Of a stretch of 64,000 nt of DNA, positions 5,120-48,327 are shown in pieces. The notes beneath the pieces are model-generated. The model made no database searches and was not told where the DNA came from. It saw nothing but the letters and a program-made list of their open reading frames with translations. Numbering within the stretch: the stretch's first letter is position 1; every line of letters starts with the position of its first letter. Both the position numbers and the translations under genes were made by a program. The stretch comes from Lutraria lutraria. Taxonomy: Eukaryota; Mollusca; Bivalvia; Venerida; Mactridae. The stretch is taken from the NCBI GenBank assembly GCA_964023205.1, contig OZ026848.1, positions 29,623,912 through 29,687,911 of the forward strand. The letters are read 5' to 3'.

Positions 5120-5197
5120 TCGAGGGTTCAGCGCAACAGTGTTGTAACTCATATTGAAATAAGAACAAGTTACGACAGTGTTGCGCTGAGCCCTCAA
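5120..5197 (-). mobile_element. 78-bp foldback element, copy 1
   Basis: Two arms of about 30 nt (outer part TCGAGGGTTCAGCGCAACA on the left; the right arm is its near reverse complement ending GCGCTGAGCCCTCAA) flank an 18-nt spacer, catattgaaataagaaca. The same 78-nt structure occurs at 20245, 21866, 26927 and 48250. This copy is in the reverse orientation relative to those at 20-27 kb. There is no coding capacity; it is probably a minimal MITE. Confidence 0.85.
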
Positions 5198-5244
5198 ATT
5201 TTGAATCATCTAAACTGGTTTTAAGCTTCGGTCAAAGAAACCAT

Positions 5245-5336
5245 GGTAATGTAATAGGAGGAAAACAATGTACCTGATGCGGTACTTGAACCTGCGACCT
5301 CCTACTTGCAACTCAGATGCTCTAACCAGTACTAAC
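5245..5336 (-). repeat. tRNA-Ala-like SINE A, - strand copy
   Basis: The reverse complement reads as a tRNA-like head with A-box-like gttagagcatctgagttgca, then gtaggaggtcgcaggttcaa, followed by the tail tacattgttttcctcctatt. It aligns along its length with the better preserved copy at 39858. The acceptor half is degraded, so this is a SINE and not a functional tRNA gene. Confidence 0.75.
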
Positions 5337-5337
5337 C

Positions 5338-5475
5338 CTTCAACAATGAGTCGGTAACTTCTCCATATATGGAGAAAAATCAACATTTTTGTCAAATTTT
5401 CATAGACCAGGATTCAAACCCGAGTCAACAGGTAACAAGTTAATAGCATACTGGATCACAGCTGTGGCCACACAT
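5338..5475 (-). repeat. SINE B fragment (tRNA-Thr-like family)
   Basis: Contains the family's central block, cttctccatatatggagaaa followed by tcaacatttttgtcaaattt, then a decayed B-box-like ggattcaaacccgagt and a decayed A-box region near ctgtggcca. The order matches the full copies at 23010-23225 and 40095-40340 on the - strand. Confidence 0.65.
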
Positions 5476-5594
5476 AAAATGAGATGATTAATTATTTTAG
5501 CAAATTCGAGTGTAGTAAATATTGCATGATGTCAGAGAACAATTTAAACCAATGATTTTAAAAACAAACAATAAAACTATGATTAAGAACTTAC

Positions 5595-5742
5595 ACACTG
5601 GCCATAGAAAGTACCCACAATTATACAGACAATAGTGGTACCAGTCCTTGGGTTCCTTCGCCTTTTTTCCTTGTCCTTCAGCACCCTCCCCTTTCCTGCC
5701 ACGAATTCGCACAGGTTTGGGGCTACGGTGCTTTTGACTCAT
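5595..5742 (-). CDS. Candidate first coding exon, unknown protein
   Basis: On the - strand an ATG at 5742 opens 49 codons plus one base, ending at a strong donor gtaagt (GT at 5594-5593). The N-terminus is basic and low complexity (begins MSQKHRSPKPVRIRGRKGEG, with a KKAKEPKD stretch), followed by an aromatic and Cys-containing segment with WYHYCLYNCGYFLWPV. The local base composition is richer in G+C than its surroundings, which fits a 5' exon. I do not recognise the product. Later exons would lie toward the left edge, and none was convincingly found. The stretch could also be a chance frame; an upstream 5' UTR is plausible but unproven. Confidence 0.4.
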
Positions 5743-5899
5743 GACAACCTCTTACGTCCTCCGTCAAATTTCGGTACTTTTCATACATTCCTTACACGGA
5801 AAACATTGTTAAATCCAAAGATACGATCCAACGTTATTTTTCTCAACACTAAATGTGACAACGCACCATCAGAAAATTACCGATATATCTAAATCAACT

Positions 5900-7550
5900 C
5901 CTACAACAGACCAATGCATTAATATCGCAACAGTAATTTTCAATATTAAGATGAGAAAGACAATAAAAGCGGCTATGAATGATCTATTCTTAACCTATAG
6001 GCAACATAAAACTGTGCTTCCAATTCTAGAGAAATCAATTCTATATTTCTTAAGTAATCCTTCGCATTTATCAGAAAACAATGCTATCATCTGACAAAAA
6101 TCGTTTGCTGTAGGTATAACAATCATAGTATATGAATTCTCCTAAAATCTCCTCATAGATTTTATATTTTTCATAAATATGTGAAAAATATTAATTTTGC
6201 CATTTGATATTTATTATTTCATAGGCTCCTAATTTCTCACATTTTTCCTCACAATTCCACTTAGGACTTCCGAATTAAATTGACAAATCAAGCTGTGAAA
6301 TATAGTTCTTCTTTCAGAACGACATACCACTGGATTTAATAAGCAAAATTATATGTTGACACGAAAATGAAACTGAATTCCATCATGAAAGTATTCTAAA
6401 AATAACATTATGAATATATTCATTCAGAAACGCAAATTCTGCTATATTCAGACCGACATCGGTAAAAGCATCTGTCACATGTAATTAACAAGCATGAAAT
6501 ACCAAGAATTAAATCGTCCCCGCAAGCTATATGGCAACAATTGTCTATCAACATCACCTATTTAAATCCATAATGATGATTATCAGTAAGCACTAAACTC
6601 AATAATCAAATTCAATAGATTCTTCGATCTCTTGTATTCACTCTCCAGTATGTCAGAATGGTCAGTCCTGTCCATGTCAATACACACACTAAGCTCATAT
6701 TATAATACATACACGGAATTCCATGTAATGGACAAATTTTTTTCTGGGGAGAAAATCTGTCATTGACCTTCTTTCTCAGCGGTATTATCATTGATTATAC
6801 ATAGATTAGGAAGCCAAGAGAATCTAAATGACACCAAGCTACTTTTGTAACCTTGATAATGTTTTCAAAGAAATGGTCGCAACAGTTGGATCTAATATTT
6901 ACGATCTCTCGTTTCAACATCGCATCAATTCTGTTATTGTCATCAAGGTAATTAATTCTCTGAATCCAAACAGCGCAATAAAAACAATTATTTAATCAAA
7001 CAAGCATCTTGTTCTAATCAAGTACACCACACTATTTGCTTCGGTTAAATATTGGAACTACTCCATTTTAGTCCTCATGGAAATTCCAAGTTTGGTGGAT
7101 TGATTGTAAAACTAGTTACCGACTGCTATCCCCTATGAGTGAATGACACCAATATTCCAGCTCAAATTATGGATGTAATTGTAACTATAATTAAATCCTT
7201 CCACAATTTGACTGTGCTTGATTTTTTGTTTTGGAATTAAAGCTTAATGTAATGGTATACTAGAGTTTCCAAGATGGCAAGATAAATCAGCCAACAAACA
7301 GAATACAAGTTGCAAGCTCGGAAATAATATTGATCCAACAGCGGCATTCCAAAACACACTTTGCCTTCTTTAAAAAAAAGCAATATTGAATTTTCTACCG
7401 ACTCTGTGGAGTAGAAAAATGTTTCTGAATGATACTCAGAGCATCTTGATCGTTATGAACTCTTAGGGTGGAAGAGAGCGAATTAATTTAAGTCAATTGA
7501 TGAGGACTTGTTCGCATGTCATTAATTTTACATTACATATAAGAAAATTG
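5900..7550. other. No gene or repeat recognised
   Basis: AT-rich sequence with only short non-descript reading frames. No splice-bounded coding segment or repeat family found elsewhere in the window was noticed. Confidence 0.4.
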
Positions 7551-7554
7551 GTTT

Positions 7555-7690
7555 AAGGGGGGGGGGGGGGGGGGGGGAGTCACATCAAAATAGGAAGCCG
7601 GAGAAATTGCATTTTAAAGCATTCAAGCTTGAAGTTTCAAGAATGTCTTAACAGTAAGTGACAGCTTAATAATTGCTGAAGGTAATAAAC
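7555..7690 (+). repeat. Dispersed repeat with 21-nt G run, copy 2
   Basis: A homopolymer of 21 G (7557-7577) followed by agtcacatcaaaataggaag and gagaaattgcattttaaagc, matching the - strand copy at 4760-4920. The shared unit next to a G homopolymer suggests the run is part of the element. Confidence 0.6.
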
Positions 7691-8324
7691 TTGGTTTATC
7701 GGTTACATAAACACTAAACGAGATTTATTTAGAATAGTGTTTATATTCGCCAATAAAAAATAAAACAGAAGCATCTTTTTCTCCATAAAAAAAACTCAAT
7801 GAATAAGACAGCACAGCATAAAGCTTCTGAAAGTAAAAAAAAATCAATCACTCTGAATGTTGCTTCCCAGCCTAGATGTAATCAAACTTGAGATCAATCT
7901 CTGAGCTCAAATCTTGTATCTTGTCTTTTTATGTTTCGAAGTTAATTATGATCAGACAATAACGATACTATTGACACATTAATCTGACAGAATGATTTAT
8001 CTGTACTTGTATTTAAACATTAATCTGAGCTCTATCTTTTCAACAATAATACTTTGAGAATGGAATCGAGATTTGAGCTCTGAGATTATTCTCAAGTTTT
8101 ATACCTACTTGGCTTGGTTTATTCAAAACCAGTGGTTGCATATATTCTAAGTATTATAAGCACACAGTAGAAATCTGCTGATTACAGTTTCAAACTTGTG
8201 ACTTCTGGTTCCTATATTGTGTACCCTTAAAACCAAGAGGTAGAGAGTAACAGACCATCTGAAAACTTCTAATGTAAGTTTGTTTGTTATGGGTCCAATT
8301 CCATTTGCCAGCAACACGGGCAAA

Positions 8325-8345
8325 CAGAGAGAGAGAGAGAGAGAG
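8325..8345. repeat. (GA)n microsatellite
   Basis: An uninterrupted run of about ten ag dinucleotides. Confidence 0.9.
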
Positions 8346-8354
8346 CAATTATAC

Positions 8355-8430
8355 ACCTGTCAAATGGTTATTTATACTTGATTATTCATAAAGTATGCAA
8401 GAATAGTTCATGAAAAATTCATGATTTCCA
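8355..8430. repeat. TTCATGAA-box dispersed repeat, copy 1
   Basis: Contains ctgtcaaatggttatttata, then attcataaagtatgcaagaa and ttcatgaaaaattcatga. The same order of palindromic TTCATGAA-like boxes between a ctgtcaa end and a ttcatgaaaa end recurs at 30540, 37520, 42165 and 51355. Confidence 0.6.
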
Positions 8431-9264
8431 TTGGAAGGGATAGGTCTCAGGACCTGCACTTTGTAAGTTCAAACTCTGGACACAGCAAAATTAATGTTCA
8501 CAATGATTTGGTTTAAGACATGGCATAAAATATATGATCTTTAGCTTTCCATAACTGATCATTTATATGGAGAAGTAGATTGATCGTTACTAGCGGAGAA
8601 CAGGGTTAGTACTGATGCAGAACTCAGGATAACTGATTAAGATAACTGCGGATGGTTCCCCGACCCTCTTCCACCAATGACGGGGAATAATAAATGAATC
8701 ATAATCTAACTGATTTTTACTATAAAATGGGCATTTATCATGATTATTTTCAAATAATTTTTGATTACTGTTTATTTCTAAAATGAAAAACAAAGTGTTG
8801 TTTGTTACAAAATCAGTATTCAGGTGGCACATTGTTGAAATTCACACCTTATAAGTTGTAGTAGATATCTAAAAACACTATAAGTAGACTATTTTATGAA
8901 ATTTGTGATGTTTTATACTGGAATATAGATATCTCACTTCCAATTTGAATAAATATATTAACAGGTAAAACTCTAAAAAGGTATAATATTTTATGTTTGA
9001 TGCTTGAAAAGAAAAATATTGTCGCTCAAATAATCAATTATTAATCAATTACTTTCATTGAGATTACCAATTATTATTCAATTACTGAGTAAACCTGTTC
9101 ATCAATATTTTAATTGACTAATGAAAAAGCAAAATACTCTTTAATTTAGTTGATTACTTGTTCAAGTAATTGGCCCCATGTCTGGAAAAAGGAAAAAAAC
9201 AAAAACATTTCCAACAATATCTATGCTTAGCATAACAACTAGTTGACCCTACTGGTGTTTTTTA
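8431..9264. other. No gene recognised
   Basis: AT-rich sequence. The 8440-8500 piece (ggtctcaggacctgcact...ttcaaactctgg) looks like a decayed SINE head but is too short to assign. Confidence 0.35.
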
Positions 9265-9475
9265 GGCTGGTGCCTTGGTCCAACGGTTAGACCGCTGGAT
9301 TTGTAACTCGGCAATCCAAGTTCAGTCCTAGTTCCAACAGGTCATACCTTTCCATGAAAATTCCGACAACATTGTCAATTTTCCTCCCTATGTGGAGAGG
9401 TGGCTGGTTCCTTGCGGAATTTAGTCCAGGGAAAACTTGTTAGGTGAATTGGCCACTGTATATAACAGAAAATGT
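9265..9475 (+). repeat. SINE B, + strand near-complete copy
   Basis: A tRNA-like head with A box tggtccaacggttagac and a predicted loop tttgtaa (TGT, Thr-like), then a B-box-like gttcagtcc. It is followed by the family body: caggtcatacctttcc, then ttgtcaattttcctccctat, gtggagaggtggctggttcc, and cagggaaaacttgttaggtg ending in ggccactgtata. It is diverged from the consensus and has no coding role. Confidence 0.8.
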
Positions 9476-9904
9476 GTTACAAAGGCCCTAAACTCAAATA
9501 AATAGAAACTGGTGCTTTTAGATTATCTACCAGTACTAAGGTGTCCCATAGCTCTTGAAAATGCTATAAATGCATGTCTGATATGCAAGAACATTTTCAA
9601 CATTTCCATTCTCACATTTTCTGCAAACTTGGTACTAGAATAGAACATTTTGTACAAATGTTCTTCTCTGTTCTATGTGACTTTTATTTGAATACATAAA
9701 ATGATAATGGTGCTTCAAAGTCAATACGATAACTCCTCAATTTGCTAAGCTAATACAGAACTGACAATTTATTCCCAAATAATTGCATTAGAGGTGCCGG
9801 CTGCACACTAATTGATCAAATTAAATGCATTAGAGTTCAATAAAGAACAAAAACTGAAGAAATATATGTCAATGCAATTTAACAGAAAACAATTATTGAA
9901 CAGA

Positions 9905-10065
9905 ACAGTTAAACCTGTGCACAAAGGCCACCCTTTGGAAAGACAAAATATGACCTTTATTGACAGGTGGCCTTTATTTAGAGGTCTGCTTGTTCTAAAT
10001 TATCAATGTTTTTTCAAAGAATGACCTTTATTCGGAGGTGGTTGCAAAAGACAGCTTTGACTGTA
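9905..10065. mobile_element. MITE P (CAGTCAAACCTGTG ends), copy 1
   Basis: Starts acagttaaacctgtgc and ends gctttgactgta, an inverted pair. Inside are several related blocks, aaggccaccctttggaaaga, gacctttattgacaggtggc and gacctttattcggaggtgg. Copies or fragments of the family occur at 20073, 23223, 23605, 28105, 31131, 35989 and 52513. Confidence 0.75.
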
Positions 10066-10239
10066 CTATGAACTAAAACTGCCACAAAGTGACTTAAAAT
10101 ACCCCCAACATACCGCCTTTTCACAGATGTATGGCTCCTAGTTGTACAAAATCTGTGCCATAATTGGTGTGATTGCTTGTTATTATAATGACAGTGATCA
10201 GGTAATTTAAAATCCCACAATATATAACTGAAAGACAAG

Positions 10240-10493
10240 CTAATTCATGGCCATTTTAGAGAATTGATATTCAAGTGTGACCATGACCTTGGAGATATTG
10301 ACGTAATTCTTTCACATGACACACCGTCCCATGATGGTGAACAAATGTACCAAGTGATTTTAAAATCTCACGATGAATGACATAGTTATGGCCCGTACTA
10401 GCTCATTTTTTACCTTTGACCTCCAAGCGTGACCTTGACCTTGGAGATATTGACGTAATTATTTCGCATGACACTGCCCCATGATGGTGAACA
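10240..10493 (+). repeat. Bivalve-type dispersed repeat, left part, split by LTR insertion
   Basis: Two tandem related units, each with gaccttggagatattgacgt and catgatggtgaacaaatg; the first continues into taccaagtgattttaaaatc. The second unit is interrupted right after aaatg by the LTR element and resumes as taccaagtaattaaaaaatc at 14095. The pre-insertion sequence is therefore visible in the first unit. Confidence 0.75.
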
Positions 10494-10497
10494 AATG

Positions 10498-11418
10498 TGT
10501 AACATAGCATTTTGGTATTCAAAATGCTTATTTTGCATAACATAAGAATTAATTGATTATAAGTCTAGTACCCTATTCATTCAGTATTAAGTTAAAAATA
10601 AACCATTTAAGATTAGATAAAATACATTTGATGTTATCTACTTACTTCCTACTTAAGAAATTCCCATAAAATAACTTGTCAATTTTTGTACAAACATGTC
10701 AAATTTATAATTGTTAATTTTTAGCACCTTTTCAATTAAAAGCCTTATGGCTTGATTAATACAAAAGGTCTGTTCCCTTAGTCCTCTTTATCTATCTAAG
10801 CCATACTGATTATCTATTTGATAATATTTAATTAATACCATATTATATTGTTGTCATAAAAACACTTTTGGCTATTTAAGTTTATCTTGTAATTTATAAA
10901 ATCAGTCTTACTTTGTATGTCGGTTAAGCAACATCGTTTTTAGAATCTAGTCTTACTTGTATCTCAGTCAGTGAACATTTTATATTAGTCTTACTTTGTA
11001 TGTCGGTTAGTTATCATCATTAGAATATAGTCTTACTTTGTATATCGGTTAAGCAACATCGTTTTTTAGAATACAGTCGTACTTTGTATCTGAGTTAGTG
11101 AACATTTAAGATAGTCTTACTTTGCATTTCGGATAGTGAACGTCATTAAAATAGTTATATTAATTTAGTTGAAATAAGTCAGGTGCTTGCTAATTGTGTC
11201 ATTATCGAAATACCTACCATCCAAGAAAATAAAAGGAAATCTAAACTTCACATTGAACTTTGTGTTTATTTATCTACATCAATGAGGATACTGGTATTAC
11301 ACCATTCATTAACCCAGTATACCACCACCGCTCGAGGGTTACAGAGTAGGGGCTCACTGCCAACAAGCGAGTTCCCCACAGTGCCCAGCCGTCGCCCTGC
11401 CTGCGACCCTCGGCTACA
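10498..11418 (+). repeat. 5' LTR
   Basis: A 921-bp terminal repeat, TGTAACATAG to CGGCTACA. It contains an internal set of degenerate ~60-bp direct repeats at about 10905-11150, each with agtcttactttgtatgtcgg or a close variant followed by gttaagcaacatcg or gtgaacatt. These could be promoter or enhancer repeats, as seen in other retroelement LTRs; that role is inferred. Confidence 0.93.
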
Positions 11419-11442
11419 GATTTTGGCGGAGAATACCTTGGG
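11419..11442 (+). other. Candidate primer-binding region
   Basis: Immediately inside the 5' LTR the sequence is gatttTGGCGGAGAATACC. A TGG a few bases after the LTR end is the usual start of a tRNA-complementary primer site. I could not match the following bases to a named tRNA. Confidence 0.45.
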
Positions 11443-13154
11443 TAGAAGATCAATCTTGGAATGGTATCGGAAACAGATGGAAGAAACTAGTGATGGTAGG
11501 AAAATTAGAACATTCAAAATATGGTTTACCAGAGTGGAAAAAATATGATAATTACCAGGAAAAGACAATGATGAACAGCATGTATGTAAAGTGCAGATTG
11601 AAAGGAAACTGTGATACAGATATAAAGTAAAGACTCTACTATGAAAAAAATGTAAAAATTGTAAAATGTAAAAAAAAAAAAAAGAAAAAAATGTAAAATG
11701 GTAACTAAAAAATGATAATGATAGATAAAAAAAGACAGAGTAACGTTGTAACAAAAACAATGTAGATAATTATAGATATTGTTTCTACTTACTTAATATA
11801 ATGGGTTATTAAATTATGATTAAGGTTCTTTATAATATTGCGTCATAGCATTAAGCTCTTGTTGAAGTTTTCAATCATTTTATACAGCTATGGTAATTAC
11901 TGCATGTACATTAGTCCATTAGTGTATTTATTATGCAGGTGAATTCTTAAAAGTTGGATCTATTAATTTGAATCACACTACCGATTGTTGCGCATGTTTT
12001 TTTCTAAAACTTAATAAGTCGTTAATACATTGGTGTTTACTGCATTTACATTATCACTTGGATGTATATATATTGCAGGTGATTTCAAAATATCAGATCT
12101 TGCAATTATTTATTTCACATTCTGCCTTGCTTTTAATGGTAATTCTTCATTCATTAGTTTAGGTTGTAAAGAAAAATTTGTGTCATACTAAATTCATAGT
12201 TGAGCTAAGTAATATAGTGAATATTAGAACTCTACCATGAAGAATGTAAAATGTATATTTGTATAGTAAATGTGTTATACATAATACTTAAGGTGGCTGA
12301 CATATAAAGTTGCATGAGTAAATCTTGAGTCATAGTCCACTAGAAACTGTTTTATACTAGTAGTAAGGATTGTTTTATTTTTTATTATACTTACATGGGA
12401 GATTAAAGTTATTGCATAGCCATGTTGGTCATCTTAAAATCTCACCATAAGGGAAAGTCAAATACAATATGTGTACATAGGTACCATTATATCAGTTATT
12501 GAAGTTTACTTCAAGGCTTATCAGTTAAAGTTGCATTTCGGAAATCTTAAGATAATGCCAAAAATATGTATTTTCTGTGTTTTATAGACTACAATTTATC
12601 TAATTGTTGCTGCATAAAACTTTGGTGACTATTACTGTATTGTTTAAAGACATGTATCTCATGTCCAATGCTATATTTTCTTTAGAGTGATAATTTTGTG
12701 TTACATAATAGCTTATGTGCTTATTATTCTCTTAGAGATACCAAGTTGAATGCTATTTCTTTAATTCATAGAATTATTTTGTATATAGATGTGCACATCA
12801 TTATGATAAATAATTATTGTATGAAGTTAAAACGTTAATAATATTGTATAAAAGAAAAATATTAGGAAAAGTTGACTTGTTGAAGTGCTATTAATGAAAT
12901 AAAAATACAAGTTAGCGTTATAATTTCCGGAAAAAAAAAGAGAGCAAAAGTTTAAAAATCAGTGTTTTAAATATTGTATGTATATGTGTATGTATGTATG
13001 AATAAGTGAGCAGGCCGCTTTGAATGTGTGATATGTTTTATATTTGAATGTTCATTATTTTAATTCTGATATATGTGTTTAATTTGAATGTTAACTTCAG
13101 TCTCATATTGTTTTTCTTAGAGTAAATTTTTATGATTGAGGACAATCATTTTTA

Positions 13155-13169
13155 CAAGGAAGGGTGATG
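13155..13169 (+). other. Candidate polypurine tract
   Basis: Just before the 3' LTR the sequence is caaggaagggtgatg, purine-rich and directly abutting TGTAACATAG. This is the expected position for plus-strand priming. Confidence 0.6.
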
Positions 13170-14090
13170 TGTAACATAGCATTTTGGTATTCAAAATGCT
13201 TATTTTGCATAACATAAGAATTAATTGATTATAAGTCTAGTACCCTATTCATTCAGTATTAAGTTAAAAATAAACCATTTAAGATTAGATAAAATACATT
13301 TGATGTTATCTACTTACTTCCTACTTAAGAAATTCCCATAAAATAACTTGTCAATTTTTGTACAAACATGTCAAATTTATAATTGTTAATTTTTAGCACC
13401 TTTTCAATTAAAAGCCTTATGGCTTGATTAATACAAAAGGTCTGTTCCCTTAGTCCTCTTTATCTATCTAAGCCATACTGATTATCTATTTGATAATATT
13501 TAATTAATACCATATTATATTGTTGTCATAAAAACACTTTTGGCTATTTAAGTTTATCTTGTAATTTATAAAATCAGTCTTACTTTGTATGTCGGTTAAG
13601 CAACATCGTTTTTAGAATCTAGTCTTACTTGTATCTCAGTCAGTGAACATTTTATATTAGTCTTACTTTGTATGTCGGTTAGTTATCATCATTAGAATAT
13701 AGTCTTACTTTGTATATCGGTTAAGCAACATCGTTTTTTAGAATACAGTCGTACTTTGTATCTGAGTTAGTGAACATTTAAGATAGTCTTACTTTGCATT
13801 TCGGATAGTGAACGTCATTAAAATAGTTATATTAATTTAGTTGAAATAAGTCAGGTGCTTGCTAATTGTGTCATTATCGAAATACCTACCATCCAAGAAA
13901 ATAAAAGGAAATCTAAACTTCACATTGAACTTTGTGTTTATTTATCTACATCAATGAGGATACTGGTATTACACCATTCATTAACCCAGTATACCACCAC
14001 CGCTCGAGGGTTACAGAGTAGGGGCTCACTGCCAACAAGCGAGTTCCCCACAGTGCCCAGCCGTCGCCCTGCCTGCGACCCTCGGCTACA
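13170..14090 (+). repeat. 3' LTR
   Basis: The same 921 bp as the 5' LTR, offset by exactly 2,672 bp; I saw no substitution when reading the copies side by side. It ends CGGCTACA and is followed by the duplicated AATG and the resumed host repeat. Confidence 0.93.
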
Positions 14091-14094
14091 AATG

Positions 14095-16530: not shown

Positions 16531-16536
16531 TATTTT

Positions 16537-18222: not shown

Positions 18223-18235
18223 CCGTTATACGGCG

Positions 18236-18882
18236 AGGTGTAAAACGCGGATCCCGCGGATCCGGATCCAATATAGAACATATAAGGGGGAATATGGAGT
18301 GTTACGGATCCATACATAACTTTCTTATTATTTGACAGAATAAGACAAAATCGGTATCGAATTAAAGCTGAATATCACAGCTTCATAGGCATATCAGATA
18401 TTGTAGTTTTTAATGGAAAAACAAACATGTAATTAAAGATAAAAACTGAGTGTTTTGTCCCGGATCCAGATCTGCAAGATAGAAAAATGGAGTGTTACGG
18501 ATCCATTCATAACTTTTTTATTTTTTGACAGAATAAGACAAAATTGGTATTGAATTAAAGCTGAATATATTGAAATATTTAATTGAAAAACAAATGTGTA
18601 CCTAAAAATAAAAACTGGGTATTTAGTCCCGGATCCAGCTTTGAAAGGTCTCGGAATTAAAGGACACATTCATGTATCTTTTATATTTGGCATAATGATA
18701 TGTTTTTAAACCAAAAGATATGCCTATGAAGCTGTGATATTCAACTTTAATTCGATACCGATTTTATCTTATTCTGTCAAATAATAAGAAAGTTATGTAT
18801 GGATCCGTAACACTCCATATTCCCCCCTATATGTTCTATATTGGATCCGGATCCGGATCCACGGGATCCGCGTTTTACACCT
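18236..18882. mobile_element. 647-bp foldback element with GGATCC-rich long inverted repeats
   Basis: The left arm (18236 to about 18395) starts AGGTGTAAAACGCGGATCC. The right arm (about 18713-18882) is its reverse complement, ending GGATCCGCGTTTTACACCT; the arms match over about 160 bp with few differences. Each arm carries clustered GGATCC sites (ggatcccgcggatccggatc on the left), then gagtgttacggatccatac and ttgacagaataagacaaaat. The centre (18465-18570) holds a third, diverged copy of the arm core in left-arm orientation. The element is flanked by a 13-bp direct repeat, CCGTTATACGGCG (18223-18235 and 18887-18899). No transposase is encoded. Confidence 0.85.
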
Positions 18883-18899
18883 GGCCCCGTTATACGGCG

Positions 18900-20072: not shown

Positions 20073-20483
20073 GCAGTCAAACCTGTGAAAAAAGGCCACC
20101 TTTGAGGAAGACAAAATGTAGTCTTTTTATAATTGACCTTATTCAGAGGTGATTTTGCTCTAAATAATTGATGACCATTTTTAAAGAATATGGCCATCAT
20201 AATTTTAGTCTCTACATCAATTTTCACAAACCTGTTAACATGTTACGAGGGCTCAGCGCAACACTGTCATAACTTGTTCTTATTTCAATATGAGTTACAA
20301 CACTGTTGCGCTGAACCCTCGATAAGTTACCCTTTGGAAAGACAAAATGTAGCCTTCAATGACAGGTGGCCCTTATTTGGAAGTGATTTTGTTCTTGAGA
20401 AACAATCATACTTTTTAAAGAATAGCCTATATTAACTGGGTGGCCTTTATACAGAGGTGCCAACTAACACATGTTTCCCTGTA
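20073..20483. mobile_element. MITE P pair with a nested foldback
   Basis: Begins gcagtcaaacctgtgaaaaa and ends acacatgtttccctgta. The internal aaagacaaaatgtagcc / gacaggtggcccttatttgg blocks appear twice, so two copies lie in tandem or nested. The 78-bp foldback at 20245-20322 sits inside the second copy, between acaaacctgtt and aagttaccctttgg, so it inserted after the MITE. Confidence 0.7.
20245..20322 (+). mobile_element. 78-bp foldback element, copy 2
   Basis: Arms CGAGGGCTCAGCGCAACACT and GTTGCGCTGAACCCTCG flank the spacer tgttcttatttcaatatg. It is inserted in a MITE P copy, which shows independent mobility. One CpG in the left arm has become CA (gtcataact versus gtcgtaact). Confidence 0.88.
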
Positions 20484-21085: not shown

Positions 21086-21865
21086 ATACTCGTAACAACT
21101 GATATAATAAAAATCATCCTCAGTAAGAATCATGCATTACTGAACCAAATGTGCATCACTTGTAACTTAAATTGATAGCAAATACAGCAGGAACTAAATT
21201 CATAGAGCAGATGACATGTTATAACAAAATAAATACTTTTCATGCCAAGACAAGGTAATGAAGTGCCAACTGTTGAAAACATTATATTGATACAAGAAAA
21301 AAAAATTAGCGCACATCTTATTATGCAGAAAAACGAAAGTGTCCAATATTATGCAGCTTATAACCAGTCAATAGGAATGCAGCTTTGCCATTGGTCAATT
21401 GCTTATAAATACAACCAATCAGACGAGACTTGTTTTCAAATTGATTTATTTTCCCAAGACAGACTCATGAGGTCACAAACCAATAAATATCAATGTTTGG
21501 GTAAGGTTTCACACAAAACAACAGTATTTTGTTACATAGAGTGGCCATTTCCAGATAACAATAGGTAACTTGCACCAAACTGATAATATACCCGTTACTT
21601 AGATGATGTTAATGTACAATGCAACTTAAAATGTAAAGATATTCATGTCAAAAACAGACACTACAGTTCACCAAAAATCTCAATTAAATGATGGATGTTA
21701 TGTTACATTTTAATGTATAGGAATGTCAATTGCACATAGCCCTGTTCTAACACAATGTGCCTTAACAAGCAAACTACAAATTCTCCCAAGTACAAGAAGC
21801 TGTGTTCGATAAATGCCTACACCCTCATACAAACAGATGGATGGATGGACAAGGCAATCACTAAA
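21086..21865. other. No gene recognised
   Basis: A + strand frame of 108 codons (21242-21568) has no recognisable domain and no splice context. Otherwise nothing is supported. Confidence 0.3.
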
Positions 21866-21943
21866 TCGAGGGCTCAGCGCAACACTGTCGTAACTTGTTC
21901 GTATTTCAATATGAGTTACGACACTGTTGCGTTGAACCCTCGA
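21866..21943 (+). mobile_element. 78-bp foldback element, copy 3
   Basis: One of the best-preserved copies: TCGAGGGCTCAGCGCAACAC at the left and GTTGCGTTGAACCCTCGA at the right, with spacer tgttcgtatttcaatatg. It lies in sequence without other recognised repeats. Confidence 0.9.
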
Positions 21944-22544
21944 AATGCTCACGCAACCATGAGCATAATAGAAACATTTTGTCTGGACACGCTTACGTTT
22001 ACAACGTCTTGGCGTGGTTACAGACACATACTATTGTTTGACATCATGTTTAGTTGTTGTTGATTATAATCAAGTGAAGAGGATAGGACCTGAACGGCAT
22101 TTTGATGCTGTGACAAACTAAATGTGGCTTCAAAAGCTTATTTCAGTGAGAGAAGGGCAGCGGAAACAATCTCTAAAACAAAATCTCCAAGTGACTCGAG
22201 GCTTCAAATATCAATCATAGAATGGGAAGTCATATGACTGGGAAACATAGGAAAATCCAAGCAATAATGGAATGGAAAATTAATGTGGAGAGTGATTGAT
22301 AACATAGAAGATATAGTATTGAGATATCGGAACAATCAATATAATTTACTGACACATGATCCTATGAGATTAACTCATGTTTTAATTCATGTGTGAGAAT
22401 ACAATGAGATAGCTGCTAGTAAGTTATAATCATGGTGTTATATTGATATAACATTTTAAAGCAACAAATTGGTTTTCGTTTCAATTAAGGGCATTCAGAA
22501 GAAAAATTATTTATGTTTTTCAGTGGGACTTCAACACCATTTTC

Positions 22545-26590: not shown

Positions 26591-26926
26591 TTCTAAAGAG
26601 AGTGCATAAAAAACAAGTCGAACTGTATCACCATCAGGTAGAGATTGATCAATTTAGATAAAATATAATTTGATATCTCTTAACATTAATTGATAAGAAC
26701 TAGAGTTCTAAAATTAGTTAACTCCTTAGACCATGATTTCTTTCCCAATCCACATCAATAACCATACTCACATCAATAAATTAGATAAACCATAATAAAT
26801 TGTTTAATTAATTCCGATTGGATAGTAATTGAAATATTTACAAGACTAATCAGAAATAAGAACATTTTGATGAATTTCGTTTACTGTGAATTTAGCTTTT
26901 TCTATAACAGGAATGGCATCACTATA

Positions 26927-27004
26927 TCGAGGGCTTAGTGCAACACTGTCGTAACTTGTTCTTATTTCAATATGAGTTACGACACTGTTGCATTGAACCC
27001 TCGA
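26927..27004 (+). mobile_element. 78-bp foldback element, copy 4
   Basis: Arms TCGAGGGCTTAGTGCAACAC and GTTGCATTGAACCCTCGA with spacer tgttcttatttcaatatg. Compared with the other copies, CpGs are changed to TG or CA in both arms (agcgc to agtgc; gcgttg to gcattg), the signature of methyl-CpG decay. It is flanked by ta on both sides. Confidence 0.88.
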
Positions 27005-27239
27005 TATATGTATTGGACCATATAACATTGTGTCAATGGGACACAGATTACCCCAACATTCGGCTGTTTTGTCACAATGAATTACAGAGTTACATGCATG
27101 ACACCAGTAAAAATATGCCAGATTTTGCTTAAACAGGGGCAATCACTCTGATCTCCAATAAATTTATGTCAAATACTCAGGTGCGTGTTTGTAAGTTCAC
27201 ATGCTGACATACATTCTTAGAAAGTTTCATGGCACTAGC

Positions 27240-30135: not shown

Positions 30136-30136
30136 A

Positions 30137-30314
30137 TACAGTGCAACCTCCCCAATGCAACACCCTTTGGGAGTAGCAAAATTATATCATTGTTGAGAGG
30201 TTGTTGCTCTAGAGAGGTTAAATTAATAGTTAAGTCATGCAGTGGGGAAACATCATGCTGTTGTTGAAGGGAGGTTGTTGCTCAAGAGGGCCACTCTGTA
30301 GAGGTTGTACTGTA
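30137..30314. mobile_element. MITE I (TACAGTRCAACCTC ends), copy 1
   Basis: Left end tacagtgcaacctcccc, right end gaggttgtactgta, with internal gagaggttgttgctctagag and ggaggttgttgctcaagagg. The sister copy at 53929 is in the opposite internal orientation. Confidence 0.78.
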
Positions 30315-30605: not shown

Positions 30606-31130
30606 AATTCTGTCTATATATATCAAAATGGTAACCTTAACTAATCAGCTGTCAGAAAGTGTGTCATGCTAATGAAATGAGACATGCAAGAAAGAGGGTG
30701 ACATAAAAAGAAATAGTATAAATGTAAACAACCTGTGAGTATATAGGTTCCATACCAACAACACAATTTACTTAATCCAGTTTCTAATTTCACGAGAATT
30801 TCATCAAGATCATGGAAATTGTGCATTTTCCATGCATTTTCTGTTGCTAACAACCGTACAGGTATCAATAACACGAAACGAAAACGTAAACATACTTTAC
30901 ATATCATACAATATTATCAAACATTCATTATCCTGATAGTCGGTACTTTCAATGTCGGGGAAAGGTGGGAAAATATAAAAAACGCAAAAGACTTGGAAAT
31001 TTTTCAAAAATTCTGTATACATTTATAATGTGCATCCTGGCTCTAGGAGACTATCTTGTCAATCAAGCAGTCTATGCTTATGTCTGTATCATGCAATGAG
31101 CAGAGTATTCTATAACAATCAAGTTATCCA

Positions 31131-31312
31131 TACACTTAAACCTGTGAACATAGGCCACTCATGGGAAATACAAAATATGGCCTTTCTTGACAGGTGACCT
31201 TCATTTGGAGGTCATACTTTGCTTATTGATCAATAGCAGCTTTCCATAGAATGGCCTTTATCCACAGGGTGACCTTTAATTGGAGGTGAACAGTAACACT
31301 GGTTATACTGTA
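31131..31312. mobile_element. MITE P copy
   Basis: Left tacacttaaacctgtgaaca, right cactggttatactgta, with internal aatatggcctttcttgacag and gtgacctttaattggaggtg. Confidence 0.72.
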
Positions 31313-35985: not shown

Positions 35986-35988
35986 AGT

Positions 35989-40015: not shown

Positions 40016-40094
40016 ATAATTATTATTCCTCCTAATTAAAGCCAGAAAGATGCTAAATGACCCTGGCTCACAAAAAAAATTAACCAGTCACAAG

Positions 40095-40340
40095 TTTTGG
40101 ATATTCTTCTTTTGATTTGGGTTTAACCCCATTTTTCAACAATCTTTCAGTAACATATGATGGACGATTCACCCAACAAGTTCTCCTGGATGGTATTCTA
40201 ACCACAAGGAACAGAAAACTTCTCCACATGTAGGGTAAAATTGACATTTTTGCCTAAGGGTATGACTTGCCATGACTAGGAATCGAACCGAGATCACCGG
40301 GTTACAAATCAAGCATACTAACCACTGAACCATGGCCGCG
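40095..40340 (-). repeat. SINE B, longest - strand copy
   Basis: Reverse complement: head gccatggttcagtggttagt, loop tttgtaa (Thr-like TGT), B box cggttcgattccta, body caagtcatacccttaggcaa, aaatgtcaattttaccctac and atgtggagaagttttctgtt, then tccaggagaacttgttgggt. It ends ttgttgaaaaatggggttaa acccaaatc. This is the reference copy for the family in this window. Confidence 0.82.
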
Positions 40341-40344
40341 GCTT

Positions 40345-41340: not shown

Positions 41341-41344
41341 GCAC

Positions 41345-41655
41345 TTTACAACAACCACTTTGTCACAGAGGTGGCTTAAATACCCTGCCGCCTATTTGAC
41401 ACTAGGAATACAATAGTTCACTATATGGCTAAGTTCAAGGGCACATAACTCTGGAATGTCTGGATCACTGGGCATGGAATTTGTGTCTTGCACATCTACA
41501 CTTCATATGGATGACAAATTCTAAATTTCATTGCAATCGCTTGTAGTAGTTCGCTCCACTAACTTGTGAAGTGATAAGTGGACGGACGGACTGACCGCCC
41601 AACCAACATAGTGACCCCAATATACTCCTCTCAATTGAGCGGGTATAGTAATTTC
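41345..41655 (+). repeat. 'gtcacagaggtg ... gggtataat' dispersed repeat F, copy 1
   Basis: Order of blocks: tttgtcacagaggtggctta, tttgacactaggaatacaat, aagttcaagggcacataact, cttgcacatctacacttcat, gtagttcgctccactaactt, gacggacggactgaccgccc, gtgaccccaatatactcc, gggtatagtaa. The same order is found at 45290, 50700 and 55025. It is non-coding. Confidence 0.75.
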
Positions 41656-42164
41656 TCTATATTTCAACAAGATAAGACTACGCCTTCAATATAAGAACAG
41701 ATATCTTGGGTCACTTATGTGGTCTTCATATCAAAGTTTTACTGTATATTTGGGACACAATTATTACTATATCATAAATCTTATAATACACTCCGATATG
41801 GCCATACATTACATATACAGAAAATCAATGAACTAATGCAGTTTCACTATTATTCATCGGGAACTTAATTTAGCAGATTTACTGGGTCGCGATGTCCTCA
41901 AAATCGATCACTACAAATGTAAATGCCAAGATAACAGTCAACAATTTAAAAATTGGGGATATCCGAAACTGAGAAATTAACTACTTGACTTAATTTATAA
42001 ACACATGCGAATCAATTACAAAATGTACTTGCATTTTTAATTCACTGATAATTTATGCTTATTTTATTCTATTGTAGAAAATGGTTAGGCAAAAATGCTT
42101 TCGTTAAATCAAAATCCACAAATATACATACCCATACCAATTGACCCCAGTTAAACATTTATTT

Positions 42165-42235
42165 ATGCTTCATGAACTTTTCATGAAATAACCAAGAGCA
42201 ATTCATGAAAAATTCATGTTTTCATAAATTCCATT
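42165..42235. repeat. TTCATGAA-box repeat copy
   Basis: ttatgcttcatgaacttttc, atgaaataaccaagagcaat and tcatgaaaaattcatgtttt. Confidence 0.55.
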
Positions 42236-42436
42236 CGAAAGCATTTCAGTCAAAACCAGGAAAACTGATGCCAAACAGAAATAAATCAAACCATGATAAT
42301 TATATACTAAATGTGTTATGAAAATACTTGTTACGTAATTTCCTTTTGTATGATACAGTATCACTGAATTGGTGATGGTATATAAGGTGTAAAAAATGTT
42401 TGTTTCTGTGTACATACTCATTGAAAATATGGTAGG

Positions 42437-43051
42437 TACAGTGTTGCATATAGGCCACATGATTGCGCAATTCATGCATATATATTTTGCAGATCGTGCA
42501 TTATCATTAAGTCAATGTGCGCCCGGTCACGCATCTGACTGCTGATTCTGCTGGCGATCGTAGTAAAGGTGTCCGCCATGTTTGTTTTTGTCTAATACCG
42601 GAATCAGACCATACAGCAGGCGTTTATTCATGATTATGTTTATTAGTTTTATTAAGCGATGTTATCCTTACACATCGATATACAAAGTGAAAGTAGAGAT
42701 TTTCGGGAAATGTTAGGTCATCTGGTCGATCTAAAACAACAACATACATTTATATTTATCGGACATTTACGTGCTAAACCTATCAAATAAACAGTATACC
42801 ATAAACGAGCACTATAATTGTGAAAAATAAAGGCAAGACCATACAATCTATGCCTCGCGGCAATCTATTTTTAGAGGTGCAAAGTCTATTGTTTATTTGT
42901 GTGTTTTTTGTTTTAGAGCAAATTACACTTTTAAGTGATTGTATTGTTTAAGTTACTCCAAGTCCCATACCTTTTTTTCAAATCTCCCACATTTTTTAGG
43001 TGAGTGGGGGAAAATCCCCCATGCTTTTGGAATCCTAGATGCAACACTGTA
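42437..43051. mobile_element. 615-bp TIR element (TACAGTGTTGCATMTAGG ends)
   Basis: The left end tacagtgttgcatataggcc and the right end aatcctagatgcaacactgta form an 18-nt inverted repeat with one mismatch. The interior near the left end is unusually rich in CpG (gtgcgcccggtcacgcatct, ctggcgatcgtag, gtccgccatg). On the - strand this holds a 35-codon frame starting MADTFTTIASRISSQ at 42579, probably fortuitous. No transposase was found. Confidence 0.75.
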
Positions 43052-43054
43052 GAT

Positions 43055-43388
43055 ATAGGTCAGAGCTTCTTTTTTGGACTCTTGAAAGAGTGTTGAAGGG
43101 TAAAACAAGAGTGCCCTAGCAGTGCCATGCTAAACTGCATGTTCACTGCCTCAGTGAGATCTATCCACCTATGAAGTTTCATGTTGATACCAGGTCCTGT
43201 TATGAGCTACATTAAAGTTTTCGCACAGCCACAGACAACAACTCAGTGATCACAATTGCTCGACTTTTTATTAAAATTGAGAAAGTGGTTGTCCTGTTCC
43301 TCAGGCCTTATAATTTAAAGTCTATGGTTGCAGGGGGGAAACTTAGGTAGGTCAGATAACAAGTAGCAAAAATATTTTTAGGCCTTAG
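43055..43388. mobile_element. MITE E, long variant
   Basis: The right end gtcagataacaagtagcaaa then tttttaggcctta is clear. It carries the same internal insert as the copy at 29159 (gtgatcacaattgctcgac). The left end is degraded and abuts the preceding element. Confidence 0.6.
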
Positions 43389-43389
43389 G

Positions 43390-44595
43390 TCAAAAATAGA
43401 TAATATCAGTAGACCATCACTGAAATTAATTTACAAATACTTGTCAAAACACTCCTGTGTCTTGAAAATAATTAAACAACTTTACGTAGAGTAAAATCGA
43501 TTTGAATGCTTCTAACCAACATTACGTAACAATTCAGTGTCATAAACAGAAACCAAGGAAATGCTACACTATAGTTTCCAGGACAAATTTTTCGGCTGCA
43601 GTTAGGTGCATGCGTCAGTAAATAAGATAAATAAGATAACAAGATTAATATGCTCACATTGTCATGTCCTATTTTTTAATTAGGTTACTTATTATTAATA
43701 GATTATTTGTTTTACGTAACAAGTAGCCGCACAGTTTTAATAGAAAATAGGGAGCCAAAAAAGGGACCTTCTGATGCCAAATTATTACTTAAGATCCATT
43801 ACAACTTATGTAGGACCATTACAAAAAAAGTTGTGGTTCAGTTGTGATCCCAAGAAACAAATACTCGTTACGTTTGGCCTCAAAAGACATATAAATCATA
43901 TCACAGATAATAATCAAAGGGAGAGAATTGTAACAAAATCACTCCATAGAGAAATGCCGTTATTAGAAAATGACATAAAACACTCAAGTCATTTACTTTG
44001 CTGCATCAGAATTAATTGGTTGAGATTATTATAACATTTATATGGAAATAAATGAGTCAATTCTGAGTAATAATTTAAGCTATCTTTAGATAAAACATCA
44101 TGTCCTAAAATGTGATGCATTTTGATACATTTTTAAGTATAATACGTCTCTGATTTTTAAAACCAATCTTGTTATCAAGTGAAGACTGACGCATTAATAT
44201 TTTAAAGATCAATTTCGAAAATGTGTTATCAAAAATACAGATCAATGCTCATCAAAGAATCAAATAATTTGGTCTGAATTAGTGTAAAATATGCATGACG
44301 GAGTTTGGTAAACGGACAACAGAAATCATATCATTAAAGCACTAGACTGTTGAATGAGGCAGTATTATGTTGTATAAAATACACAGAAGGAGACTTTAAG
44401 TAATTACATGGGGAAAACATCATAAAATATGACACTTGATTGTCTAAAAAACACTTCATGAAGAAATTTAATTAATAAACAAATATGACACTACATTATA
44501 TGGAATAGTTCATCAATGTATACAATCTGACATTATATGAAAGTGGTTAGACACTGTATAGAATAAGCTACTGTATTACACAGACTTCTTCATAT
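43390..44595. other. No gene recognised
   Basis: AT-rich sequence. An 86-codon + strand frame (43774-44034) has no recognisable feature. Confidence 0.3.
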
Positions 44596-44599
44596 TTAT

Positions 44600-44880
44600 C
44601 TGTCTCCCCAAAGACGGGAGATGAGGTACAGGAAAACCAGGCGTTTATATCCTTAGTCTTATTTCAAAAAGTTTTTCCTAGTTCATTATTGTGTCTGGTG
44701 GTAAAGCTACAATACTCGCCTTACCCTTTCCTGTGATTTTTTTAACACAGTACTTGGCTTGATGGTTGGGATGGGGACACTGAAACAGCATCCCTGAAAT
44801 ACTAAAAGACGGAGTTAAGACTCGAACCCTCAACCTTTCGTTTAATAGTCCAGGGCATTACCAGAAGACCATTGATCACG
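44600..44880 (-). repeat. SINE C, - strand copy
   Basis: Contains gaggtacaggaaaaccaggc, cctgtgatttttttaacaca and gtacttggcttgatggttgg. The tRNA-like head is in reverse complement: aagactcgaaccctcaacct, ttaatagtccagggcattac and cagaagaccattgatc. Confidence 0.75.
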
Positions 44881-45289
44881 CCTACACACTGACTTAGTAT
44901 AACACTGAACAATATGGAACAATTAAGAAATGGAAACATTGCCAAATATTAAAACTCAGTCTTGCAAACATACTGCATAGATTGAAAGCATGGAATGTAT
45001 ATAATAAATCTAAAATTAGGAACCGCAATGTGCATCCTCTTATATCTAATAGAAAACAAATCAGTTTTATGTCTTGATGCCACTTGTTTGAAAGCCTGCT
45101 TCAGATACAAGTCGGTTAATTAGCCTTTGATTCAAAGTGGTACTCCAGAATAATAGAATTTCTAGAAAGCATTGATGTGGCATACAACATCCATTATCAT
45201 TCATCGCTGACACTAAATATTATTTATTTGTGGGTGTGTGAGATTTAGGCTCTTGTCTTACTTACAACTGGCCAGATCTTGACTTAAAG
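44881..45289. other. No gene recognised
   Basis: No supported feature. Confidence 0.3.
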
Positions 45290-45562
45290 CTTTGTCACAG
45301 AGGTGACTTATACCCCTGCTGCCGCTTTGACACTAAGAATGCGATTGTACACTATAGGGCTAAGTTCAAGGGCACATAACTCTGGAATGAGTGAATCACT
45401 GGGCATGGAAATCGTGTCTAGTACATCTACACTTCATGGTGATGACATATTTCAAGTTTCATTGCAATCGCCATCGAAATGTGGAAGTGATACTGCATGC
45501 GGACAAACTGACGGACGAACCAACCGCCTGACAAAGTGTCACTCCAATACGCCCCTCTAAAA
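45290..45562 (+). repeat. Dispersed repeat F, copy 2
   Basis: Same block order as 41345: gtcacagaggtgacttatac, tttgacactaagaatgcgat, ttcaagggcacataactctg, tacatctacacttcatggtg, then aaactgacggacgaaccaac and gtgtcactccaatacgcccc. Confidence 0.75.
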
Positions 45563-46438
45563 ATTTGTTTGCAGAGCTATAAAAAGTCTAAAGTGAACAG
45601 TAGTTAACTTAAAAGCAGTTTTCAGGAATCAGTATAAACACAAACCTTGTTTACATGAATGGTAAGAAATTGAATATGCATGTAATGTCCTTGACCACAA
45701 TCTTGTCACAGAATACATAGGTGACACCCTGGGCTGAGACAAACCCACAAACCCAAGGTCTACGGACTTGATGCTTTTACCCATAGAGCAAAGTTGGTGA
45801 TATAATACTGTGCCTGAATGAACAGACAAAGAGAAAAAACATTCTGTGTTCTTTGCATACTGATATATAGACTGGATTATTTATGTCCCTCTATTATGTA
45901 TACCATATCTATCCTAATAAATGTACCTCCCACAAATTAATAACCTCCCGTTTTTTAGGGAAAAAAACAAACAAACAAACAAATGTAACTCCATTATATC
46001 TCTTAATAATCCTACCATTTATACCCAGTGCATCAGTAAAATCGGTATAAGCTGGACAAATTAAAAATGAATTCCTCAAACTGTTAGCACCCTGGGTACA
46101 TTTATTAGGAAATAATCTATACATCCATATGTCTGTACCTAATAAATTAATACCAATGCATTATTGGATAACAATGAATCTAAGACAAATGTGCAACAGT
46201 TTATAAGATGAGCTATCTTTGTACAAAACACATGTTCATACAATATATAGCATCGATCATTAACCCTTTTTAATGCAATTGCTATTTTTACAGAATTTAC
46301 CAGCTAACACCATACAGATTCAAACTATCATTCGTCATGTTATGACATCTGTTTAACCAGCAAAATCTTCACAACTCACTGGATAGATAATCCTGCCAAC
46401 ATGAGAAATAAAACAAAACTTGTTTTTTTTAATGAAAG
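45563..46438. other. No gene recognised
   Basis: AT-rich sequence. Nothing supported. Confidence 0.3.
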
Positions 46439-46440
46439 TA

Positions 46441-47388
46441 CAGTAAAACCCCGATTATTCGAATGTCGTTGGGCCCTGAAAAATCATTCGGATAATCCAT
46501 GGTTTCGAATAATCCATTTCAGTCTGATGTACCGGTTGGAAACGATAAATTCCGTACTGTCCGTATATTGCAAGGGAGTTAACTCTCGTGTGCAAACATG
46601 ACGTTACTTGAGTGATAATAAGAATAAAATAAAAATGTATAACAAACATTTATTATTGGTTTATCCTCGTTTTATGAATGTATATGAGTTAACAAATGAA
46701 ACAATAATTCTTGTTCAGTAAATGCCTGCGCATTTATGGATTATGCAGAACACAATCCGACACAATAATATGTCATTCTCACTTCACTTACTAACGATCG
46801 ACTAGGCATCGCTATCGTCACATTCTCAAACAATTAAAAGAATCGAAGACGTAATGTTTTTATGTTTGGAACATTTTTTTCACTAAATCATCATATTCTA
46901 GTTAGTTTTGTTTAATTGTGTTCAAATCAGTTTTTAAATTTTGAATGACACTGAAATGCAAATAATTTCATACAGATCACCAGGTACGTACACGTATTAA
47001 CTTATTATACCCGAGATCATAGTGAAATAGTCGTCGCGATTTGTATAAAATCGAAACAAACAATATGGTCAACTTAACGATAATTAAACTGTTGACACGC
47101 TTCGTGTATGAATTGATGTTACACATTGTTTGTCACACGACATTTGATTCTCAATCGGCCATTGTTATCAATTGACGATTTCGAATAATAGGTGTGAAAA
47201 TACGCGCATTCGTAACTTTAGGGACCAAATAATGTATTCGGATTACACCAGGTATTCGTAAAATCCGATTCATATAACCGGGGTTCGTTGCAGTTGAAAT
47301 ATATAGAGACGTAATCGGGACCGTAGATTTTATTTGGATAATACCGGGTATTCGGATAACCGGTGTTTGGATAATCAAGGTTTTACTG
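46441..47388. mobile_element. 948-bp pogo/Tigger-like MITE
   Basis: The left end CAGTAAAACCCCGATTATTC and the right end (reverse complement) CAGTAAAACCTTGATTATCC form TIRs. Both sides carry TA (46439-46440 and 47389-47390), the target duplication of the Tc1/mariner superfamily. CAGTARAACCYYGATTATCC-type ends are characteristic of pogo/Tigger elements. The outer 80-250 bp contain further 'ggataatcc/cgaata' motifs in inverted arrangement. No transposase frame is present. Confidence 0.82.
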
Positions 47389-47864
47389 TATGTAAGATGA
47401 TCATGAACACAATTATGTTGCCAAACAGCAAATATTACAGTTTTTATTATCATAAAAGTACATATTTACTATAATTTATGGGCCAAAAAACAATACAGCC
47501 AACTGGGTATTTGTGTATCTTATGTGAAATTGTATAGTAAGCTTTTTATGTACTAAACTGTACCAAGCATCAGATATTTGCTTACTTGATCCAGGGCCTG
47601 TTTCTAAGGGTGTCCATGGGTGTTGTTTGATCTTTTATGAAAGATCAAGAGATGCCACTACTTTATATAAAGCAGACTTGATACCTTTTAATTGTTTTTA
47701 AGTCTTTTTTGCATGCTGGTAAAAGGAAATACCAGAAATATATACTAATGTTTTTAAAGTAATGCTTAATCTATAAAAAGGTACCCAAACCCCAATATAT
47801 GCCACATTCTCAAACAACCATCCCTTTAACACATCTGAAACCTCAAAGTCATTAATAAACTAGA

Positions 47865-48015
47865 GCTTTGTCAGAGAACAGAGTAATACCCCCTCACCGT
47901 TTTGACACTAAGAATGTGATTATGCAGACAGATGGACAGACTAACTGACCACCCGACTGACAGAGTGACTCCATTATAAAACCCCTTTCAAACTTTGTTT
48001 GAGGGGGGTATAATA
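47865..48015 (+). repeat. Dispersed repeat F, internally deleted copy
   Basis: agagctttgtcagagaacag and gttttgacactaagaatgtg run straight into cagacagatggacagactaa and gagtgactccattat...ggggggtataataa. The middle half of the family is missing. Confidence 0.7.
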
Positions 48016-48249
48016 AAGACTGCAACACCATAGAACATTCTGCTCTTCACACAGCAAGAGAATGAGAAAGAATATTCAAACCAAAGATAAAAATATATGA
48101 AAACTTTCAATCATCATTGAGGATAATTATATCCTTACTGTTTTATTTAATGACATTCATTTCATTGCCAATTAGTTTATCTATGAGTATTAATTACTAA
48201 ACAATCAGACAATAACTTAACATTTCTTCCATTTAGCTCATTTTCCATT

Positions 48250-48327
48250 TCGAGGGTTCAACGCAACAGAGTCATAACTCATATTGAAATAAGAACAAGT
48301 TACGACAGTGTTGCGCTGAGCCCTCGA
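48250..48327 (-). mobile_element. 78-bp foldback element, copy 5
   Basis: TCGAGGGTTCAACGCAACAG at the left and GTTGCGCTGAGCCCTCGA at the right with spacer catattgaaataagaaca, in the same orientation as the copy at 5120. It lies 16 bp from a MITE E copy. Confidence 0.88.

What the first reader, a model, noticed from the sequence alone, without database searches (positions are those of the whole stretch)
5120..48327. Five copies of a 78-bp near-palindromic foldback element
Copies at 5120-5197, 20245-20322, 21866-21943, 26927-27004 and 48250-48327 consist of two ~30-nt arms and an 18-nt spacer and nothing else, occur in both orientations, and all have the same length. One copy is nested inside a MITE P, so the element moved independently. 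All five keep the same arm-versus-arm differences (GGGCTC on one arm against GGGTTC on the other; ACACTG against ACAGTG), so the arms have separate histories and are not homogenised. Being shorter than almost all MITEs, it may be a minimal transposon, or a source of hairpin RNAs.
Basis: partly seen in the sequence, partly recalled or inferred. Interest (0 to 1): 0.75.

Follow-up and report, generated by a model that had tools for sequence, protein, structure and literature searches.

The report
Tiny hairpin-shaped jumping DNA element
The repeats are copies of a 76-base mobile DNA element that folds back on itself and has spread to thousands of places in this animal genome by duplicating a four-base target, which makes it a very short example of a known class of borrowed-enzyme transposons.

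Summary
Five near-palindromic copies sit at the stated places, and they are a small part of a large dispersed family. In the window's own genome (728.5 Mb), 3283 places carry both conserved ends exactly 76 bp apart, control 0. One 18-base end pattern occurs 7164 times, control 0.

The element is 76 bp (CGAGGG...CCCTCG). Of 102 distinct copies examined, 82 have a perfect 4-bp TSD, 68 of them AWWT, in a preferred palindromic target ACAWWTGT. Two empty sites, gap-free at the junction, were found in other repeats. It is therefore a terminal-inverted-repeat MITE, amplified recently: at least 40 copies are identical.

AWWT TSDs match published Sola2 elements (PMC3627910, passages read), but no transposase partner was found, so that assignment is provisional. 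Long relatives sharing the outer 13 bases and then diverging are essentially absent.

The claim that arms are never homogenised holds in the window but only partly in a wider sample. Human Made1 (80 bp; PMC1784062, passages) is a close structural precedent. Hairpin RNA production is untested.

The parts
5121..5196 (-). 76-bp element copy 1 (11/66 pair G/C; right-hand terminal base on + is A instead of G); no intact 4-bp TSD, 3 bp ATT at its edges
20246..20321 (+). 76-bp element copy 2, about 14 bases inside the start of a dispersed repeat ('MITE P') with uninterrupted relatives at 9905-10032 and 31130-31261; TSD not intact (GTTA / ATAA)
21867..21942 (+). 76-bp element copy 3
21863..21866 (.). 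target-site duplication AAAT, left of copy 3 (right copy 21943-21946)
26928..27003 (+). 76-bp element copy 4
26924..26927 (.). target-site duplication ATAT, left of copy 4 (right copy 27004-27007)
48251..48326 (-). 76-bp element copy 5
48247..48250 (.). target-site duplication ATTT (+ strand), left of copy 5 (right copy 48327-48330)

Best explanation
A 76-bp palindromic MITE: a non-autonomous DNA transposon reduced to its two 29-bp terminal inverted repeats and an 18-bp spacer. A transposase supplied by another element cuts it out and inserts it with a 4-bp staggered cut at sites like ACAWWTGT, leaving a 4-bp AWWT duplication. The superfamily is most likely Sola2, from the TSD alone (about 0.5). 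Shown: discrete 76-bp unit, TSDs, empty sites, thousands of copies, recent amplification. Inferred: cut-and-paste mechanism and the transposase type.
For: 3283 sites with both ends exactly 76 bp apart, control 0; 7164 hits of an 18-base end pattern, control 0; 40 listed copies 100% identical over 78 bases on 15 contigs (only 40 of 790 candidates are scored). Perfect 4-bp TSD in 28 of 30 loci of that set (two of the 30 are one duplicated region) and in 82 of 102 distinct copies pooled, 68 of the 82 AWWT (103 rows, one a chance pairing inside a copy already counted); chance match at a fixed boundary about 0.008. Empty sites: of 85 joined flanks, 7 had a spanning match at another place; L027 aligns without a gap at the junction to several relatives of its host repeat, including window 30136-30264, and L060 does so with L007. 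Published Sola2 TSDs: AWWT; ATAT, AAAT, ATTT (PMC3627910, passages). Sola2 transposases occur in bivalves (PMC10294476, passages), but the host here is unnamed.
Against: No autonomous partner found. The outer 13 bases followed by a different continuation give 3 hits against 2 in the control. Of 57 copies with a non-standard spacer, 30 were fetched and all but L107 read on as the same element with indels or truncation; L107 looks like a chimera with another repeat family; L111 is unresolved. Sola2 terminal sequences could not be compared. 20 of 102 copies lack a perfect 4-bp TSD, among them two of the five window copies. The other five spanning matches (L036, L043, L052, L088, L096) have gaps near the junction or are weak.
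Confidence: 0.9

Rival explanations
1. A Tc1/mariner palindromic MITE like human Made1 (TA target duplication).
For: Nearly the same size and anatomy as Made1, 80 bp = 37 + 6 + 37 (PMC1784062 passages).
Against: TSD is 4 bp, AWWT in 68 of 82 TSD-bearing copies, and AAAT, ATTT, ACAT contain no TA; ends are CGAGGG.
Confidence: 0.03
2. A dispersed family of hairpin RNA (miRNA-like) genes, copied through RNA.
For: Stable hairpins on both strands; Made1 gave rise to the human mir-548 family (PMC1784062, passages).
Against: Symmetric ends, exact 4-bp TSDs at a palindromic DNA target and both TIRs kept point to DNA transposition. Expression untested.
Confidence: 0.04
3. A MITE of a 4-bp-TSD superfamily other than Sola2 (Sola1, Ginger, Chapaev or an undescribed one).
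For: No partner transposase or terminal sequence comparison was possible; that these other superfamilies have 4-bp TSDs is recalled, from no call.
Against: The specific set ATAT, AAAT, ATTT equals the published Sola2 examples.
Confidence: 0.4
4. Fragments of a larger repeat or segmental duplication.
For: L013 and L028 share over 99% identical flanks.
Against: That is one pair among 30 loci; the other flank matches printed (over 150 bases) are repeats in different registers, and empty sites lack the element precisely.
Confidence: 0.01

Closest known systems
Made1 (MADE1), human palindromic MITE of Hsmar1
   Same: 80 bp, two long TIRs with almost no spacer, high hairpin potential, non-autonomous (PMC1784062, passages)
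   Different: mariner family; here a 4-bp AWWT TSD, different ends, 18-bp spacer, and no known autonomous parent
Sola2 DNA transposons
   Same: AT-rich 4-bp TSDs AWWT, namely ATAT, AAAT, ATTT (PMC3627910, passages)
   Different: Those described there are long, mostly coding elements with 12-21-bp TIRs; terminal sequences not compared; no transposase found here
MITEs in general (iMITEdb classes)
   Same: Short, non-autonomous, TIRs plus superfamily-specific TSD, high copy number (PMC5199201, passages)
   Different: The six insect superfamily averages quoted in the passages are about 373-482 bp; this one is 76 bp

Membership tests
MITE (TIR non-autonomous DNA transposon) | terminal inverted repeats | tested here: met
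   25-27 of 30 complementary in the 5 window copies
MITE (TIR non-autonomous DNA transposon) | target-site duplication of fixed length | tested here: met
   82 of 102 copies with perfect 4-bp TSD
MITE (TIR non-autonomous DNA transposon) | dispersed, precisely bounded, high copy number, too short to code | tested here: met
   3283 strict 76-bp sites; unrelated flanks; empty sites
MITE (TIR non-autonomous DNA transposon) | derived from / moved by an autonomous element with matching ends | tested here: inconclusive
   none found sharing the outer 13 bases with a different continuation (3 hits, control 2); a partner sharing fewer bases is not excluded
Sola2 | 4-bp AWWT TSD | tested here: met
   68 of 82 TSDs are AWWT; published set in PMC3627910
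Sola2 | terminal alignment over the first 11 bases to a known Sola2 element (Repbase rule, PMC4455052 passages) | not testable with these tools
   no Sola2 reference sequence available
Sola2 | Sola2 transposase in the parent | tested here: inconclusive
   no parent found; the genome was not searched with a Sola2 protein for want of one
Tc1/mariner MITE (Made1-like) | TA target duplication | tested here: not met
   4-bp TSDs, many without TA
miRNA gene | processed small RNAs from the arms | not testable with these tools
   no small RNA data; fold only; no Rfam family reaches its gathering score on the copies

The most novel reading that the evidence does not exclude
An orphan minimal transposon: a 76-bp element with only two 29-bp arms and a spacer, whose recent amplification to thousands of copies has no recognisable parent in its own genome, so that a transposase with ends similar over only a few bases moves it in trans. 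Copies as short as 32-35 bp with both ends and a TSD (L066, L084) could themselves be mobile, which would put the substrate minimum at about 30 bp.
Probability: 0.15. Interest if true: 0.55.

Novelty: new member of a known kind. Interest (0 to 1): 0.33.

Why it matters
It gives a sharply defined, very small high-copy TIR element (76 bp) with its preferred target (ACAWWTGT) and 4-bp TSD, a clean data set for asking how short a transposase substrate can be. Its variable arm pairs differ by single steps between complementary and mismatched states (T-A, C/A, C-G at 7/70; G-C, G/T, A-T at 11/66), while a C/C mismatch at 19/58 is nearly fixed (40 of 42), so it can be used to ask whether palindrome arms are corrected or selected. 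As a thousands-strong set of hairpins it is also raw material for small RNAs, as Made1 was in primates.

Tried and rejected
Exact matches to degenerate arm patterns (29 and 22 bases) were not found in the viral contigs or in the bacterial and archaeal genome contigs (the tool may leave out records near the window's own genome). Text search for six arm fragments in PMC full texts gave 35 papers, 30 listed; none of the 30 is on this element by title or abstract start. Listings of searches for short, palindromic or bivalve MITEs showed nothing closer than Made1. BogoMITE (PMC9942856, passages) is about 389 bp.

Autonomous partner: a pattern that excludes the standard spacer gave 57 hits. 30 were fetched with it and two more as L111 and L112; the other 25 were seen only as 35-base matches. 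Of the 30, all but L107 read on as the same element with insertions, deletions or truncation. L107 carried short coding-like frames after the end sequence; three pieces match no Pfam family, and the stretch belongs to a separate repeat family (664 first-look candidates, 40 scored, matches other than itself starting 25 or more bases in, most at 41), so L107 is probably a chimera. L111 has foreign sequence after the end and no second end at 13 of 18 within 3 kb; unresolved. The different-continuation pattern gave 3 hits against 2 in the control. Counts of copies longer or shorter than 76 bp by spacing pattern were asked for and never answered (N{57,87}; N{25,55}), so the genome-wide length distribution is not measured; the 73 of 103 rows at 76 bp come from a set enriched for odd lengths.

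Chance: direct matches of 2-5 bp at fixed boundaries were counted along the window as a null.

Full report
Observation. They are 71-75 of 78 identical to each other, lie in both orientations, and have arms 25-27 of 30 complementary around an 18-nt spacer; an ungapped scan found no weaker copy in the window. Both strands fold into hairpins of -37.7 to -48.3 kcal/mol, 8.6 to 12.5 s.d. below shuffles. The window has one Rfam match at gathering score, a tRNA-Ala, and none on the copies.

Genome-wide. The window is G000:C17:29623912-29687911 of an unnamed 728.5-Mb assembly in 71 contigs. My impression from its repeats that the host is a mollusc was not tested. A typed 78-mer gave 40 perfect matches on 15 contigs; only 40 of 790 first-look candidates are scored, so this is a lower bound. 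The end pattern CGAGGGYTCARCGCAACA has 7164 exact hits, reversed control 0; its 100 listed hits are 76 distinct places, 24 of them hit on both arms (my count). Both ends exactly 76 bp apart, nine fixed bases each, occur at 3283 places, control 0 (the pattern is its own reverse complement, so forward and reverse counts are the same places). Three of the five window copies fit that strict pattern.

Boundaries and target. Two of the 30 (L013, L028) lie in one duplicated region. Pooling the window and L001-L113 and removing duplicates gave 103 rows; one (102 bp, L026) is a chance pairing inside a copy already counted, leaving 102. Of these 82 have a perfect 4-bp TSD; by class (both strands merged) 33 ATAT, 32 AAAT/ATTT, 3 AATT and 14 others; the site logo is palindromic, A-C-AWWT-G-T, with the A and C at 0.62 and 0.55. 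The chance of a 4-bp match at fixed boundaries here is about 0.008. The pool is not random: it contains copies chosen for being perfect and copies chosen for odd interiors. In the window, copies 21866 (AAAT), 26927 (ATAT) and 48250 (ATTT) have TSDs; copies 5120 and 20245 do not.

Independent movement. Copy 20245 lies about 14 bases inside the start of a dispersed repeat with uninterrupted relatives at 9905-10032 and 31130-31261; the left-hand match is short and a second copy of the repeat lies just upstream, so this nesting is likely rather than proven. Better evidence: I joined the flanks of 85 copies with the element and one TSD copy left out. Seven had a spanning match at another place. L027 aligns without a gap at the junction to the same repeat elsewhere (window 30136-30264, L046, L007 and others), and L060 does so with L007; the other five (L036, L043, L052, L088, L096) have gaps near the junction or are weak. 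Flanks of the 30 perfect loci share repeats in different registers, L013/L028 apart (matches over 150 bases were printed). This is insertion of a discrete unit.

Arms. In 42 copies (37 from the start of C1, chosen by having at least one intact 18-base end, plus the 5 window copies) position 19/58 is C/C in 40 and unpaired in 41, position 7/70 is C/A in 34, C-G in 5 and T-A in 3, and 11/66 is G/T in 28, G-C in 10 and A-T in 4. The joint states (27 CA|GT, 7 CA|GC, 4 CG|AT, 3 TA|GC, 1 CG|GT) form a single-step chain: TA|GC, CA|GC, CA|GT, CG|GT, CG|AT. So the mismatched form is the commonest but forms paired at both places exist at both ends of the chain; this could be compensatory change, arm-to-arm correction, or plain mutation of a few source copies, and my sample cannot tell. 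In a 40-copy sample, 76 of 121 differences from the commonest form are transitions, 39 of them at CpG, the usual decay of silent copies.

Length variants. In the pool, 73 of 103 rows are 76 bp and 8 are 74 bp, in a set enriched for odd lengths. Eight copies of 32-64 bp keep both ends, 7 of them with a 4-bp TSD (L066, L078, L084, L087, L089, L094, L095; not L088). Deletion in place and movement of the short form cannot be told apart from single copies.

Partner. No long relative was found: the outer 13 bases followed by a different continuation occur 3 times against 2 in the control. A parent sharing fewer than 13 bases, or one that shares the 18-base end with an interior missed by my spacer filter, is not excluded. 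L107 is best read as a chimera, L111 is unresolved.

Family. PMC3627910 (passages) gives Sola2 TSDs as AWWT, with ATAT, AAAT and ATTT as examples, which are the three main classes seen here. Repbase puts non-autonomous elements in one superfamily if TSD length is equal and the first 11 bases align (PMC4455052, passages); I had no Sola2 ends to align. Sola2 elements occur in bivalves (PMC10294476, passages). I hold the MITE reading at 0.9 and Sola2 at about 0.5. Made1, 80 bp with 37-bp TIRs, shows that such tiny palindromic MITEs are known and can become miRNA genes (PMC1784062, passages).

Verdict. Real, well-bounded, recent and abundant; a new family of a known kind, notable for size and for the lack of a visible parent.

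Noticed in passing
48781-48843: Another short palindrome: two 29-nt arms, 93% complementary, 5-nt loop (AATAAACGCCCCC ... GGGGGCGTTTATT); no second copy in the window's self-comparison.
   Followed up: no
10495-11421 and 13167-14093: 927-bp direct repeat, 99.9% identical: recent duplication or assembly artefact.
   Followed up: no
18232-18886: Large foldback, 139-nt arms 98% complementary with GGATCC-rich outer arms.
   Followed up: no
57112-59354: 42-bp (2 x 21) tandem array of about 53 units, open in three frames over more than 760 codons.
   Followed up: no
L013 and L028: Over 99% identical flanks on C12 and C5: segmental duplication or uncollapsed haplotype.
   Followed up: no
L066 143-174; L084 1503-1537: 32- and 35-bp internal-deletion forms with both ends and a 4-bp TSD.
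   Followed up: partly
L107 1499-1830: An 18-base element end abuts a coding-like repeat family with many relatives (664 first-look candidates).
   Followed up: partly
L111 3036 (- strand): An 18-base element end followed by unrelated sequence, no second end found within 3 kb.
   Followed up: partly
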